The notes under the pieces are model-generated. The model was not told the DNA's origin. It made no database searches and saw only the letters and a program-made list of their open reading frames with translations. A program made the position numbers and the translations under genes. Below, one piece after another: positions 91 to 6,427 of a stretch of 59,389 bases of DNA. Numbering within the stretch: the stretch's first letter is position 1; each line of letters starts with the position of its first letter. Origin of the DNA: Alphaproteobacteria bacterium (lineage in GTDB: Bacteria; Pseudomonadota; Alphaproteobacteria; Geminicoccales; Geminicoccaceae); the NCBI GenBank assembly GCA_026982705.1, contig JALSGP010000024.1, forward strand, positions 1-59,389, read 5' to 3'.

Positions 91-127
91 GCCTCGACGC
101 CTTCTTCATCAGGGCAAGTGGCTAGAG
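91..127 (-). repeat. Degenerate terminal CRISPR repeat
   Basis: This copy matches the consensus in its last 27 bases, but its first ten (91-100) match at only about five positions. Terminal degeneration is normally seen at the leader-distal end, which supports leftward transcription. Confidence 0.85.
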
Positions 128-1593
128 GTAGCGCGGCGCCTCGGCCTGCACCCCTCCACGGTAGTCTTAATCCCTTCTTCATCAGGGCAAGTGGCTAGAG
201 GCGGGCGCAGCGGCGGACCATTCGTGTCCGCCGCGTCTTAATCCCTTCTTCATCAGGGCAAGTGGCTAGAGCACCTACCCCGGCGACCGTCTGCTCGGGT
301 CAGGTGGGGTGTCTTAATCCCTTCTTCATCAGGGCAAGTGGCTAGAGGAGGCCACCCCCGCTACAGCGGCGGCGGTGGCCGCCCGTCTTAATCCCTTCTT
401 CATCAGGGCAAATGGCTAGAGGCGTGGGCGGGATCGCCGAGGTGGAGGGGGCCGGTCGTCTTAATCCCTTCTTCATCAGGGCAAGTGGCTAGAGTCGGGA
501 TCGCCTTATGGCGATGCTTGACGAAGCCGAGTCTTAATCCCTTCTTCATCAGGGCAAGTGGCTAGAGGGCATGGATTAAGGTGTCCGTCGATGTGTTCGG
601 CGACAGTCTTAATCCCTTCTTCATCAGGGCAAGTGGCTAGAGACGACATCTCCGACGATGAGCGTGTATCCCACGGTGGGTCTTAATCCCTTCTTCATCA
701 GGGCAAGTGGCTAGAGATACGAAGGGGCGGGTATTCCTCCACCGTCTCGCGTCTTAATCCCTTCTTCATCAGGGCAAGTGGCTAGAGCTTTTTCGCGCGC
801 GCTTTTTCTATGCCATTACACGCGTCTTAATCCCTTCTTCACCAGGGCAAGTGGCTAGAGGAGGGGGCGAGGGCGGGCCTCGCCCGCGCAGACGAGGTCT
901 TAATCCCTTCTTCATCAGGGCAAGTGGCTAGAGTTCACCTTCGTTCCGAAGAACAGGGGGGTGAGGGCGGGTCTTAATCCCTTCTTCATCAGGGCAAGTG
1001 GCTAGAGCTTGAGACCATGCTGTCTCCGCCCAGCCGCGGATGCAGTCTTAATCCCTTCTTCATCAGGGCAAGTGGCTAGAGGGTGGGACCCCAGAATTGC
1101 CCGGGCCCTCCGTCGCGCGTCTTAATCCCTTCTTCATCAGGGCAAGTGGCTAGAGTCACTTTCGTTCCGAAGAATAATAGGGGGGTGAGGGGTCTTAATC
1201 CCTTCTTCATCAGGGCAAGTGGCTAGAGGGCGTCACGATCAAAAAGGAGAAGGTGATGCTCTATGTCTTAATCCCTTCTTCATCAGGGCAAGTGGCTAGA
1301 GGCGCCCGCGCCGCTGAGGGCGGCGGCCTCTGGGAGGTGTCTTAATCCCTTCTTCATCAGGGCAAGTGGCTAGAGGAAGCGCCGCAACCGCATTCCTCCG
1401 CAGTTCTGGAGTCTTAATCCCTTCTTCATCAGGGCAAGTGGCTAGAGTCGTTCTCGTGCCATGAGGTACGCGGACGTGATCTGTCTTAATCCCTTCTTCA
1501 TCAGGGCAAGTGGCTAGAGCGCCGCTGAGGGCGGCGGGCTTTGGGAGGTGCGCCTGGTCTTAATCCCTTCTTCATCAGGGCAAGTGGCTAGAG

Positions 1594-1776
1594 GACGCGC
1601 GTGGGCGCACCTTCCTCCACCTCCTCGCGGTCTTAATCCCTTCTTCATCAGGGCAAGTGGCTAGAGGGACCGGGCGTGGAGCACCGTGCTCCGCGCCCTT
1701 GCCGTCTTAATCCCTTCTTCATCAGGGCAAGTGGCTAGAGGACGCGCGTGGGCGCACCTTCCTCCACCTCCTCGCG
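1594..1776. repeat. Identical CRISPR spacer present twice (1594-1629 and 1741-1776)
   Basis: The 36-bp spacers at 1594-1629 and 1741-1776 are identical, while the spacer between them (1667-1703) is different and not duplicated. This is either repeated acquisition of one protospacer or recombination within the array. Confidence 0.95.
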
Positions 1777-2107
1777 GTCTTAATCCCTTCTTCATCAGGG
1801 CAAGTGGCTAGAGGGTCAGAGGCGCGCGCGAGCACGTGGCCTCCCTGATGTCTTAATCCCTTCTTCATCAGGGCAAGTGGCTAGAGCCCGTGCCGGGCGT
1901 CCATATGATGGGGCACGAGGGCGTCTTAATCCCTTCTTCATCAGGGCAAGTGGCTAGAGTCGGAGAGCAGGGCGATGGCCTCCGCCACCGCCTGCGTCTT
2001 AATCCCTTCTTCATCAGGGCAAGTGGCTAGAGGCGAGCACATACCCGGGATGCCGCATTCTCGGCGCCGGGTCTTAATCCCTTCTTCATCAGGGCAAGTG
2101 GCTAGAG

Positions 2108-2367
2108 TCAGCGCCACCCTTCCCCACCCGTTCTGCATTCTCCTCGTCTTAATCCCTTCTTCATCAGGGCAAGTGGCTAGAGCCATCCCCGCGCCAGCGG
2201 TATGCGGCGCGGGGATTTGTCTTAATCCCTTCTTCATCAGGGCAAGTGGCTAGAGGCCGCGGGGGGACCATAAGAATATGATGCGGCCCGAGGTCTTAAT
2301 CCCTTCTTCATCAGGGCAAGTGGCTAGAGTCAGCGCCACCCTTCCCCACCCGTTCTGCATTCTCCTC
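2108..2367. repeat. Second identical spacer pair (2108-2145 and 2330-2367)
   Basis: The 38-bp spacers at 2108-2145 and 2330-2367 are identical and are separated by two unrelated spacers, so this is not a simple tandem duplication of a multi-unit block. Confidence 0.95.
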
Positions 2368-3369
2368 GTCTTAATCCCTTCTTCATCAGGGCAAGTGGCT
2401 AGAGGAGGCCATCGCCCTGCTCGAAAAGCAGGGCGTCCCGCGTCTTAATCCCTTCTTCATCAGGGCAAGTGGCTAGAGGGGACGGGGAGGGAGGAGAGAG
2501 GCAATGGCTGAGTTCCTGTCTTAATCCCTTCTTCATCAGGGCAAGTGGCTAGAGCTGTCCCGTGCTCAGACGACCCCGAGCAGGACGCCGCGGTCTTAAT
2601 CCCTTCTTCATCAGGGCAAGTGGCTAGAGGCCCTCGAGCGGGCGCGGGCCGAAATCCGTGCCTGCGGTCTTAATCCCTTCTTCATCAGGGCAAGTGGCTA
2701 GAGGGCCCCCGTCCCGCGCACTATCGGGGAGCTCGCCGCGTCTTAATCCCTTCTTCATCAGGGCAAGTGGCTAGAGCGGTGCGGGCATCTGGGAGGCCCG
2801 CACCGACACGAAGTCTTAATCCCTTCTTCATCAGGGCAAGTGGCTAGAGCATCTTTTCCGCTCGCTGGGTGGCGGAGACCGCCCAGCGGTCTTAATCCCT
2901 TCTTCATCAGGGCAAGTGGCTAGAGGCCCGGCCGCCTGGCGCAACCAGCCCTCCCCGGGCGTCTTAATCCCTTCTTCATCAGGGCAAGTGGCTAGAGCCG
3001 CTGGGTGGCGGGGAACGCCCAGCGGGCTTGGCGCCTGTCTTAATCCCTTCTTCATCAGGGCAAGTGGCTAGAGGGGGAGGTGATCCCCGCCGAAGAGGCC
3101 CTGCGGGAGGTGTCTTAATCCCTTCTTCATCAGGGCAAGTGGCTAGAGGCGGGACGAGGCGCTGCCCGCGCGGCGGCACCTCCTGTCTTAATCCCTTCTT
3201 CATCAGGGCAAGTGGCTAGAGGCAGCGGGCGGACCATCTTTTCCGCTCGCTGGGTGGTCTTAATCCCTTCTTCATCAGGGCAAGTGGCTAGAGCGACCTC
3301 CCGCAGCGGGCGGACCATCTTTTCCGCTCGCTGTCTTAATCCCTTCTTCATCAGGGCAAGTGGCTAGAG

Positions 3370-3408
3370 GGGGCCCTTTCTGCCGGCGTAGCTCAGCCGG
3401 AAGAGCGC
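3370..3408 (+). other. CRISPR spacer containing the 5' part of a tRNA
   Basis: Bases 3382-3408 of this 39-bp spacer read as the start of a tRNA: a 7-base acceptor strand GCCGGCG, then TA at positions 8-9, then a D-arm with perfect GCTC/GAGC stem and an AG..GG loop, then GC. The 12 bases before it would be upstream flank. It resembles alphaproteobacterial tRNA-Thr starts but the isotype is uncertain. It is a spacer, not a tRNA gene. The source could be a phage tRNA, an element next to a tRNA, or the host's own gene. Confidence 0.8.
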
Positions 3409-5966
3409 GTCTTAATCCCTTCTTCATCAGGGCAAGTGGCTAGAGGCGATCCGGGCGGTGGCCCCCGAGGTGCTCTCCGGGTCTTAATCCCTTCTTCATC
3501 AGGGCAAGTGGCTAGAGAAGGAGAGAGCTGTGTCAGAATACCTCTCCCCAGGGTCTTAATCCCTTCTTCATCAGGGCAAGTGGCTAGAGCGTGGCCGCGC
3601 TGGCATCATGGGCACGCTGGTCAGCTATGTCTTAATCCCTTCTTCATCAGGGCAAGTGGCTAGAGACATACCGCGCCGGCGCATCCGATATCAGCCTCGC
3701 GTCTTAATCCCTTCTTCATCAGGGCAAGTGGCTAGAGGCCATCCAGATCCCGCCCTCCTTGGCGCGGGCACGGAAGTCTTAATCCCTTCTTCATCAGGGC
3801 AAGTGGCTAGAGGCTCCACCAGATCGCAAGCCATGCGTTACGCGCATGGCGTCTTAATCCCTTCTTCATCAGGGCAAGTGGCTAGAGTCTCGAGGAGGGG
3901 GTGTATACCCTCCTCGGGGCGGATGGGTCTTAATCCCTTCTTCATCAGGGCAAGTGGCTAGAGCTGAGCCCCCCTCCCCGCGCCAGCGGTATGCGGCGCG
4001 TCTTAATCCCTTCTTCATCAGGGCAAGTGGCTAGAGCCGTGCCCGCGCCGTCGAGGGCGCGGGCATCTGGGTCTTAATCCCTTCTTCATCAGGGCAAGTG
4101 GCTAGAGCGTCGAGGGCGCGGGCATCTGGGAGGTCCGCCCCGACGTCTTAATCCCTTCTTCATCAGGGCAAGTGGCTAGAGGCGCCGCAGGGGGAGCGGC
4201 CCTTTGGGAGGTCCGCCTCGTCTTAATCCCTTCTTCATCAGGGCAAGTGGCTAGAGAGAGGCATCGCGCCGCGGGTGGCGCTGCTCCCCGCCAGGTCTTA
4301 ATCCCTTCTTCATCAGGGCAAGTGGCTAGAGCCTCCGCCTCCGCGAGGAGGTTCATCTTCGCCCCGTCCCCGTCTTAATCCCTTCTTCATCAGGGCAAGT
4401 GGCTAGAGCGCCGTCGAGGGCGCGGGCCTCTGGGAGGTCCGCACCGGTCTTAATCCCTTCTTCATCAGGGCAAGTGGCTAGAGGGGTGGGACCACCGGGT
4501 CGCTCGGGCCCTCCGCCGCGGTCTTAATCCCTTCTTCATCAGGGCAAGTGGCTAGAGGCGCTGCTCCCCGTCCACCCCGCCCCCGCCGTCGAGGTCTTAA
4601 TCCCTTCTTCATCAGGGCAAGTGGCTAGAGAGGGCGGTGGGAGGACGACATGGAGCGTGCGGGCGTCCCGTCTTAATCCCTTCTTCATCAGGGCAAGTGG
4701 CTAGAGGCATTCCGCGGCTGGGCTGTGGGCGGGGACGTGGTCCGTCTTAATCCCTTCTTCATCAGGGCAAGTGGCTAGAGACCACCCTCCGGTGGTCCCC
4801 TGTCCGGGGGCGGTGGGTCTTAATCCCTTCTTCATCAGGGCAAGTGGCTAGAGGGGCTGTGGGCGGGGACGTGGTCCCCGCCCTCTCGGTGCTGTCTTAA
4901 TCCCTTCTTCATCAGGGCAAGTGGCTAGAGGCCTCCCGCCGGAGGAGATCCCGGCGGGGGGATGACGTCTTAATCCCTTCTTCATCAGGGCAAGTGGCTA
5001 GAGGTGGGCTCCCGCCCCGCGCTCCATCGGGGAGCTCGCCGCGTCTTAATCCCTTCTTCATCAGGGCAAGTGGCTAGAGGCGCATCGCGCCGCGGGTGGC
5101 GGTGCTCCCCGTCCGGTCTTAATCCCTTCTTCATCAGGGCAAGTGGCTAGAGCCGCTCCCTCGACTGGGGCGAGCTCGCCGCCCGAGCGGTGCGTCTTAA
5201 TCCCTTCTTCATCAGGGCAAGTGGCTAGAGCGCCGCAGAAGGCGTGGGGATTTGGGAGGTCCGCCTCGTCTTAATCCCTTCTTCATCAGGGCAAGTGGCT
5301 AGAGTTGAGCTTCGGCGCCACGTACCAGAACAGCACGTCGCGGTCTTAATCCCTTCTTCATCAGGGCAAGTGGCTAGAGAGATCACGCTGGCCGACACGG
5401 TCAGAGACGCGCGCAAGTCTTAATCCCTTCTTCATCAGGGCAAGTGGCTAGAGGGTGGCGGCTCACCATCTTCCCCCGCCGCCCCGCGGGTCTTAATCCC
5501 TTCTTCATCAGGGCAAGTGGCTAGAGCGGGGCCTCGGGGGTGGATGTCTTCACCCCCGAGGCGTCTTAATCCCTTCTTCATCAGGGCAAGTGGCTAGAGT
5601 TTGTCGAGCTTTCTGATGTCTCTCTTTTGATAATCCGCGTCTTAATCCCTTCTTCATCAGGGCAAGTGGCTAGAGGGCAGCGGTGAAGTACAACTTCGAC
5701 GTAGAATTCCAAGTCTTAATCCCTTCTTCATCAGGGCAAGTGGCTAGAGACTGTGGTGCTGTTATGCCATTATACGCGGATACGTCTTAATCCCTTCTTC
5801 ATCAGGGCAAGTGGCTAGAGTCTGGGGCCCCGCCGGATGGCGGGGCTACTTCTTATATGTCTTAATCCCTTCTTCATCAGGGCAAGTGGCTAGAGGGGCG
5901 CGGGACGAAATCCGCGCCCGCGCCGCCAAGTCTTAATCCCTTCTTCATCAGGGCAAGTGGCTAGAG

Positions 5967-6427
5967 GGACCCCCGTCGGAAAAAGGCCGAACCGCAAGGG
6001 GTTGCGCGGACGGTTGGCCAGAAACGAAACTACAGCAAAAGTTTGGCAAAATCCGCTCCGTCCTCATGCCCTCGCCCGACCGGAGACCGGTCGTCCCTGC
6101 CGGTGATGCACGCTGTCACAGAGCGCCGCTCGTCATTCCCGAACCAAGCGAACCTTAGCGCCCGGCGCCGATCGGGACAAGTCCCCGCGCGGACGCGGCC
6201 CCGGTCGGATCCGGGGGTGGCGGCCCCTCGCGTCTCGCGACGATCCGCGCGGGCACGAGGTCGGGCCGGCGGCAGGAGGATCGGGGACGCCCGGGTGGTG
6301 GCCGCGGGACGTCACATCGCCGGCCCCTCGCACCTCGGTACGGCTCCGTGGAGATCCCCGCCGCGCAAGCTCGCGGGCCCGGCGGCCCGTGGCCACCCGC
6401 TGCGGACGGGACCGCCGCCGGGGCGGC
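5967..6427 (-). promoter_or_regulatory. Probable CRISPR leader and otherwise empty region
   Basis: The 460 bp between the last repeat and the next gene holds no convincing gene. The part next to the array (about 6015-6060) is A/T-richer than its surroundings, with runs such as AAAAGTTTGG, which is typical of leaders and of the promoter that drives the array. No consensus promoter could be assigned with confidence. The remaining part (6150-6427) is G+C-rich, with only low-complexity Arg/Pro-rich frames that I treat as chance ORFs. Confidence 0.55.

What the first reader, a model, noticed from the sequence alone, without database searches (positions are those of the whole stretch)
91..5966. CRISPR spacers strongly enriched in internal hairpins
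By eye, 13 of 79 spacers contain perfect Watson-Crick stems of at least 8 bp with short loops: 201-234 (9 bp), 861-896 (8), 2183-2218 (11), 2405-2441 (9), 2777-2812 (10), 3813-3850 (8), 3888-3926 (9), 4037-4070 (10), 4854-4893 (10), 4931-4966 (8), 5527-5562 (12), 5821-5858 (8), 5896-5929 (8). Three more (1667-1703, 2850-2888, 2998-3036) reach 10-12 bp with a G-T pair. A rough base-composition estimate predicts about one. Either the adaptation machinery prefers foldable nucleic acid (structured RNA via a reverse transcriptase-Cas1, or cruciform or terminator DNA), or the targeted element is full of terminators. Self-folding crRNAs would normally be poor guides, which makes the bias puzzling.
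Basis: partly seen in the sequence, partly recalled or inferred. Interest (0 to 1): 0.8.

Follow-up and report, generated by a model that had tools for sequence, protein, structure and literature searches.

The report
Hairpin-rich spacers in type III CRISPR
A bacterial immune memory bank holds far more self-folding snippets than chance gives, and so do related banks in relatives, which fits an immune system that prefers to copy folded single-stranded DNA from its invaders.

Summary
Observation confirmed: 14 of 79 spacers hold a perfect stem of 8 bp or more, against 0.80 in dinucleotide shuffles and about 1 in host DNA. It recurs in the genome's second type III array (12 of 70), in two arrays of another genus of the family (22 of 170; 6 of 136) and in a same-genus relative (3 of 26), with no or almost no shared spacers. 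978 spacers near other Cas1 genes of the class give 5 against 2.15. No reverse transcriptase was found. The repeats match a type III-A locus with Cas1-Cas2 and a second Cas1 lacking the catalytic block. Overlapping spacers are mostly of one sense, and the target strand is enriched for start-codon motifs. Best explanation: the preference of RT-free type III-A adaptation for structured single-stranded DNA, reported from the laboratory (review PMC9048733), imprinted in natural arrays. Main rival: hairpin-rich targets. The type I arrays of the same hosts are enriched too (3 of 43; 7 of 106), and within hot spots spacers are placed randomly relative to hairpins. Only 4 kb of target DNA was found, so the two are not separated.

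The parts
91..5966 (-). CRISPR array, 80 repeats x 37 bp, 79 spacers; crRNA strand is minus (repeat read as ...GAAGAAGGGATTAAGAC, then spacer)
   Evidence: same repeat family as the array beside type III-A cas genes on contig C18
91..127 (-). degenerate, leader-distal repeat (5 mismatches)
5967..6060 (-). leader-like flank, similar to the flank between cas genes and array on C18
   Evidence: compared by eye
2183..2218 (+). spacer with 11-bp stem; overlaps 3964-3999, a C18 spacer and a type I-G spacer that carries the stem on into TTTTTTTT: an intrinsic terminator of the target
3964..3999 (+). second spacer from the same terminator site (stem cut by the spacer end)
5527..5562 (+). spacer with the longest perfect stem of the array, 12 bp
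2998..3036 (+). 14th spacer with a perfect 8-bp stem; overlaps spacer 2850-2888 of the same target site
2777..2812 (+). spacer with 10-bp stem from a site, open in one frame by my reading, sampled by at least nine spacers of the two arrays
4037..4070 (+). spacer with 10-bp stem from the same site, another allele and register
3518..3552 (+). spacer over a ribosome-binding site and start codon (AAGGAGAGAGCTGTGTCAGAATACCTC); overlaps a C18 spacer of a similar start
   Evidence: sequence; cluster A47/B30; motif count
2479..2517 (+). spacer over a ribosome-binding site and start codon (GGAGAGAGGCAATGGCTGAG)
   Evidence: sequence; cluster A33/B28/B34
3446..3480 (+). spacer identical over 35 nt to a recT-like gene on a prophage-like contig of a same-genus genome (G001:C124); crRNA antisense to the gene (gene name from recall of the sequence)
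3370..3408 (+). spacer with a tRNA-like 5' motif (not tested with a tRNA finder)
   Evidence: motif scan

Best explanation
This is the spacer store of a reverse-transcriptase-free type III-A CRISPR system whose adaptation step favours structured single strands. Most likely, while invader genes are transcribed (or replicated), the displaced coding strand folds into hairpins; these local duplexes are good substrates for Cas1-Cas2, which inserts about 37 nt containing or bordering them, without a PAM. The spacers kept are those whose crRNA is antisense to the mRNA. Shown here: the hairpin excess, its recurrence in related type III arrays with other spacers, its weakness in arrays near other Cas1 genes of the class, one-sidedness of overlapping spacers, excess of start-codon sites on the target strand, no RT found. 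Inferred: that the substrate is single-stranded DNA, that Cas1-Cas2 (perhaps with the second, catalytically dead Cas1) recognises it, that it needs no PAM here, and that the bias acts at acquisition. Target populations that are themselves hairpin-rich probably add to the effect.
For: Stems >=8, distinct spacers, observed vs shuffled: window 14 of 77 vs 0.81; C18 12 of 70 vs 0.85; G008 (Geminicoccaceae KatS3mg117) 22 of 170 vs 1.46 and 6 of 136 vs 0.57; G002 3 of 26 vs 0.20; the same repeat family in other taxa 16 of 1065 vs 3.17; arrays near other Cas1 genes of the class 5 of 978 vs 2.15. Between these genomes spacers are hardly shared: G000-G008 1, G002-G000 0, G002-G008 0 cross matches at score >=32. 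The C18 system is III-A by family models, with HD and GGDD motifs in Cas10; no RT. Overlapping spacer pairs of one sense vs the other in this genome: 57 vs 2 at score >=40, 94 vs 10 at >=34, 145 vs 44 at >=26; in G008 111 vs 6 at >=30. Ribosome-site-plus-start motif on the target strand: 13 of 147 vs 5.1 here, 5 of 26 vs 1.1 in G002, 21 of 306 vs 13.8 in G008, 56 of 1065 vs 32.6 in other taxa, against 23 of 978 vs 18.1 near other Cas1 genes, 0 of 43 vs 1.1 in I-G and 1 of 106 vs 2.1 in I-C. G-T against A-C at stem edges on the target strand: 26 vs 9 here (p 0.026), 38 vs 25 in other taxa (p 0.043), 18 vs 20 in non-type-III. Review PMC9048733 reports that S. thermophilus III-A, without RT, acquires preferentially from hairpin-forming sites, tRNA/rRNA genes, attenuators and 10-50 bp after start codons, on the coding strand.
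Against: Type I arrays of the same genomes are enriched too: I-G 3 of 43 vs 0.29, I-C-like 7 of 106 vs 1.33; type III vs type I within host gives odds ratio 1.84, p 0.12 for >=8 and 0.048 for >=7. At >=9 the arrays near other Cas1 genes also exceed shuffles, 3 of 978 vs 0.33, two of the three in one array, L071. Inside recurrent sites spacers are not placed to include hairpins: 18 observed vs 15.7 expected of 125; overlapping pairs with hairpins are not more tightly placed than pairs without; stem ends do not coincide with spacer ends clearly beyond chance. Folding energy shows no strand difference at p < 0.05 in any set (C18 p 0.056). The G-T excess is absent in G008 (23 vs 17, p 1.0). The strength varies with position within the first G008 array (p 0.0005), which points to target identity. 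tRNA-like spacers are rare: 1 of 147.
Confidence: 0.5

Rival explanations
1. The targets are unusual: phages of these Alphaproteobacteria carry many conserved hairpins (terminators, regulatory stems, GC-rich coding palindromes), and any CRISPR system that samples them collects hairpins.
For: Type I arrays in the same two hosts are enriched 10- and 5-fold over shuffles and above host DNA, p 0.02 and 0.0003. One site is a stem plus T8 terminator sampled by three arrays. In G008 two alleles of one site keep a stem through a G-C to C-G exchange, by eye in the listing. Placement inside hot spots is random relative to hairpins.
Against: Three genomes with no or almost no shared spacers, one of them with 55% GC spacers, show the same excess. 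The only target DNA found, the 4-kb prophage-like contig G001:C124, has 0.8% of windows with stems >=8, no more than host DNA, but it is short and its two protospacers are not hairpin spacers. The wider type III repeat family in other taxa is enriched.
Confidence: 0.33
2. Acquisition is unbiased but interference filters: only spacers against abundant or accessible transcript regions are kept, and those regions (gene starts, ends, regulatory leaders) are hairpin-rich.
For: One-sidedness of overlapping spacers and start-codon excess are what such a filter would leave; the review attributes strand bias in Thermus type III to selection.
Against: Structured target RNA should be harder to bind (general knowledge). 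Some recurrent hairpins lie in open frames rather than at gene ends (my reading). Type I spacers in the same hosts are also enriched.
Confidence: 0.1
3. Spacers are copied from folded RNA by a reverse transcriptase fused to or working with Cas1.
For: One-sidedness, start-codon sites, one tRNA-like spacer; G-T excess on the mRNA-sense strand.
Against: No RVT_1 match at E <= 0.001 in a genome given as 99.66% complete; Cas1 is a separate 325-aa ORF in the III-A locus and a Cas4-Cas1 fusion in the I-G locus.
Confidence: 0.04
4. Chance or base composition.
For: Spacer GC is 71%, which raises the background.
Against: Shuffles and host windows keep composition and give about 1 per 79; replicated in separate arrays.
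Confidence: 0.01

Closest known systems
RT-free type III-A adaptation of Streptococcus thermophilus and Staphylococcus epidermidis (Zhang et al. 2021, Aviram et al. 2022; known to me here only through review PMC9048733, passages and section 11 seen)
   Same: No RT, type III-A, preference for stem-loop-forming sites and sites near start codons, coding-strand orientation
   Different: Those are laboratory acquisitions in Firmicutes; this is an imprint in natural arrays of Alphaproteobacteria, with a duplicated Cas1/Cas2 module; tRNA-like spacers are rare here, and the co-resident type I arrays share part of the bias
RT-Cas1 type III systems (Marinomonas mediterranea type)
   Same: Type III interference, orientation towards transcripts
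   Different: No RT found in this genome
PADLOC model PDLC01185 'Cas1, diverged variant, second in the loci'
   Same: Second Cas1-like gene directly after cas1
   Different: Nothing known to me links it to spacer choice; in 8 of 8 aligned members the stretch with the catalytic Glu is missing

Membership tests
type III-A CRISPR-Cas | Cas10/Csm1 with Palm GGDD (and HD) | tested here: met
   TIGR02578 514.7 bits vs cut-off 170; HDIGK and GGDD in the frame; locus on contig C18, not in the window
type III-A CRISPR-Cas | csm2, csm3, csm4, csm5 | tested here: met
   four NCBIfam models over cut-off, on contig C18
type III-A CRISPR-Cas | the window's array is served by that locus | tested here: inconclusive
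   repeats differ from C18 repeats at 2 or more positions and flanks look alike; no expression data
type III-A CRISPR-Cas | PAM-independence | not testable with these tools
   only two protospacers found
RT-Cas1 adaptation | reverse transcriptase gene | tested here: not met
   no match in the genome; the control set rings in 3 of 14
RT-free type III-A structure-preferring adaptation | excess of stem-forming spacers | tested here: met
RT-free type III-A structure-preferring adaptation | coding-strand orientation | tested here: met
   94 vs 10 same-sense pairs at score >=34; crRNA antisense to recT-like gene
RT-free type III-A structure-preferring adaptation | sites near start codons | tested here: met
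   13 of 147 vs 5.1 expected
RT-free type III-A structure-preferring adaptation | preference for tRNA/rRNA genes | tested here: inconclusive
   tRNA-like motif in 1 of 147 spacers here, 0 of 304 in G008, 1 of 1065 elsewhere, 0 of 1092 non-III; rRNA not tested
RT-free type III-A structure-preferring adaptation | absent from other CRISPR types in the same host | tested here: inconclusive
   type I arrays enriched, less than type III; odds ratio 1.84, p 0.12 / 0.048
RT-free type III-A structure-preferring adaptation | requires only Cas1-Cas2 | not testable with these tools
   needs an acquisition assay

The most novel reading that the evidence does not exclude
The second, catalytically dead Cas1 and second Cas2 of these type III-A loci form a dedicated reader of folded single-stranded DNA that hands hairpins to the active Cas1-Cas2, so that these systems have evolved structure-guided rather than PAM-guided spacer choice.
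Probability: 0.1. Interest if true: 0.85.

Novelty: new member of a known kind. Interest (0 to 1): 0.52.

Why it matters
Whether type III Cas1-Cas2 itself recognises secondary structure is named as an open question in the review (passage). Natural arrays with a 10- to 17-fold excess, shared across genera, some beside a dead Cas1 paralogue, give a concrete system in which to test it. The excess also warns that type III spacers may be poor random samples of a virus genome.

Tried and rejected
Protospacers: no convincing match in 50,697 phage records for the window array or the C18 array (only weak 80-85% pieces) or for part of a G008 array (first 7977 bases only); four pattern scans of IMG/VR gave nothing. 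The RecT-like protein of G001:C124 found 4 distant relatives in IMG/VR, not followed. Peptides read from spacers matched no PHROG and only weakly 4 phage records. Plasmid records were not searched.

Hairpin-protected or hairpin-centred capture was tested three ways and not supported: pair offsets, stem ends against spacer ends, placement in hot spots. Age trend inconsistent: C24 p 0.16, C18 p 0.82, first G008 array p 0.0005. Presence of the second Cas1 was not shown to track strength: G019 showed no match and G002 only a weak one in a 580-aa Cas1-type frame, yet G002 is enriched, and of non-Geminicoccaceae loci with it L246, L253, L211, L179 and L207 show no stem >=8 while L222 shows 2 of 72.

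Rows dropped or not typed: identical spacers counted once from then on; one 802-bp interval of C18 and one 115-bp interval of C9 excluded. In one search the group 'other alphaproteobacteria, other systems' (51 arrays) was not typed array by array; it leaves out L067 and L074 (G008) and L069, L077, L090, L145, whose counts of stems >=8 are 0 of 3, 0 of 5, 1 of 48, 0 of 5. Csm1/3/4 matches at 1e-5 near those Cas1 genes were seen only in L145. 'I-C' for the G008 array L074 is from its repeat, by recall. One search aligned 8 of the second-Cas1 frames; L163 and duplicates were left out.
Full report
WHAT IS THERE. The array has 80 repeats of 37 bp and 79 spacers. The window is a whole contig, C24, of a 2.66-Mb genome in 48 contigs. 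The degenerate repeat is at the left end, and the right flank resembles the flank between cas genes and array on contig C18 (by eye), so the leader is on the right and crRNA is read from the minus strand. Cas1 matches in the genome lie only on C9 and C18. C18 carries csm1-5, a Csx1/Csx20-like protein, cas2, cas1, a second diverged cas1 and a second cas2, followed by a second array of the same repeat family, 72 repeats. C9 has a type I-G locus with a Cas4-Cas1 fusion, Csb1 and Csb2 and a third array with another repeat. No RVT_1 domain is found in the genome. I did not annotate the other genes of the window.

THE OBSERVATION. 14 of 79 spacers have a perfect stem of 8 bp or more, against a mean of 0.80 in 200 shuffled sets, and all 13 listed stems are exact. 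Host windows give 0.99 per 79. The C18 array is a replicate: 12 of 70 against 0.86.

IS IT ONE ODD TARGET? Clustering shows that the two arrays sample the same sites again and again in different alleles, mostly in one sense: 57 pairs against 2 at score >=40, 94 against 10 at >=34, 145 against 44 at >=26. Recurrent sites include a terminator (stem, then T8 in a C9 spacer), sites that read as open frames, and ribosome-binding sites with start codons. Two spacers map to one 4-kb prophage-like contig of a same-genus genome: one identical in a recT-like gene, one about 95% in the neighbouring gene; for the first the crRNA is antisense to the gene, and the second lies on the same strand. Gene names there are from recall. 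Repeated sampling inflates the counts, but the 14 hairpin spacers of the window fall into about a dozen separate sites (my reading).

COMPARISON WITH OTHER ARRAYS. Cas1 was found 82 times in 64 of 385 genomes of the class, the window's own two included. I fetched stretches around the other 80 (79 stretches and one extra) and found 57 arrays with 1315 spacers, distinct within each array. One stood out: G008, which one search identifies as Geminicoccaceae KatS3mg117 (AP024683.1) by its repeat and identical length, with 22 of 170. With the window's own genome it is one of two of 385 that match the second-Cas1 model at E <= 1e-5; a search with the protein itself found it also in G025, G028, G029 and G030 of the same family. 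The final table (distinct spacers, stems >=8, observed vs shuffled): window 14 of 77 vs 0.81; C18 12 of 70 vs 0.85; G008 22 of 170 vs 1.46 and 6 of 136 vs 0.57; G002 3 of 26 vs 0.20; G019 1 of 16 vs 0.11; G025+G030 2 of 13 vs 0.13; same repeat family elsewhere 16 of 1065 vs 3.17; arrays near other Cas1 genes of the class 5 of 978 vs 2.15 (at >=9, 3 vs 0.33); I-G of this genome 3 of 43 vs 0.29; I-C-like array of G008 7 of 106 vs 1.33. Spacers are hardly shared between G000, G002 and G008. So the effect belongs to a lineage of type III systems, strongest in Geminicoccaceae, and partly also to the type I arrays of the same hosts. Host DNA of both genomes gives 1.2-1.3% of windows.

WHAT DISTINGUISHES THE EXPLANATIONS. 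For a structure preference acting on the coding strand: one-sidedness; start-codon motif excess on the target strand in type III but not in the other arrays; G-T over A-C at stem edges on the target strand, 26:9 here and 38:25 elsewhere, but 23:17 in G008, 3:1 in G002 and 18:20 in non-type-III (pooling the four type III sets gives 90:52 against about 73 expected, my arithmetic). Against it, or neutral: no strand difference in folding energy at p < 0.05; random placement relative to hairpins within hot spots, 18 vs 15.7 of 125, a test with little power because the pieces are short; no clear edge signature, 22 of 60 stems >=8 touch a spacer end against about 30% in host windows; hairpin pairs not tighter; type III against type I in the same host only 1.84-fold, p 0.12 or 0.048. 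The only target DNA in hand, 4 kb, is not hairpin-rich (0.8%), but it is too short to decide.

LITERATURE. The review PMC9048733 (passages; section 11) reports that RT-free type III-A systems in the laboratory acquire preferentially from hairpin-forming single-strand origins, tRNA and rRNA genes, riboswitch attenuators and 10-50 bp after start codons, on the coding strand, with only Cas1 and Cas2 needed, and asks whether Cas1-Cas2 itself recognises structure. The primary paper by Zhang et al. was not held, and that by Aviram et al. was not looked up. My searches listed no paper on hairpin excess in natural arrays; they cover only the open library, several lists were cut, and only listings were seen.

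THE SECOND CAS1. Eight members aligned with the active Cas1 lack the block with the catalytic glutamate and the later His/Asp motifs (which residues are catalytic is recalled). Further copies occur in other genera with this repeat family, some on weak matches. No link to hairpin strength is shown.

VERDICT. Real, replicated and most simply read as a natural imprint of a known property of RT-free type III-A adaptation, with target composition as an unresolved contributor.

Noticed in passing
L014 14941-15742 (G000:C18): An 802-bp AT-rich insertion with a Lys-rich open frame interrupts the C18 CRISPR array between two repeats.
   Followed up: no
L014 8870-9655 (G000:C18): Second Cas1-like gene directly after cas1, with its own cas2; the catalytic block is missing in 8 of 8 relatives aligned.
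   Followed up: partly
window 1594-1629 and 1741-1776; 2108-2145 and 2330-2367: Two spacers occur twice in the array, letter for letter.
   Followed up: no
L014 10082-16154: The C18 repeats fall into blocks with three different ends (AAGTC, AAGAG, AAGAC) from the leader side outwards.
   Followed up: no
window 2479-2517 and 3518-3552; C18 spacers B28, B30, B34: Five spacers of the two arrays cover start-codon regions with similar beginnings; the reading M-x-EYLSPG in three of them recalls tail sheath proteins (recall; a pattern scan of IMG/VR found nothing).
   Followed up: partly
L067/L235 (KatS3mg117, AP024683.1): Two very large arrays of the same repeat family (178 and 141 repeat matches); hairpins concentrate towards one end of the first.
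   Followed up: partly
G003:C41:5668-5711 (L030): A single degenerate copy of the repeat next to a leader-like stretch in a same-genus genome in which no array of this repeat was found, perhaps a lost array.
   Followed up: no
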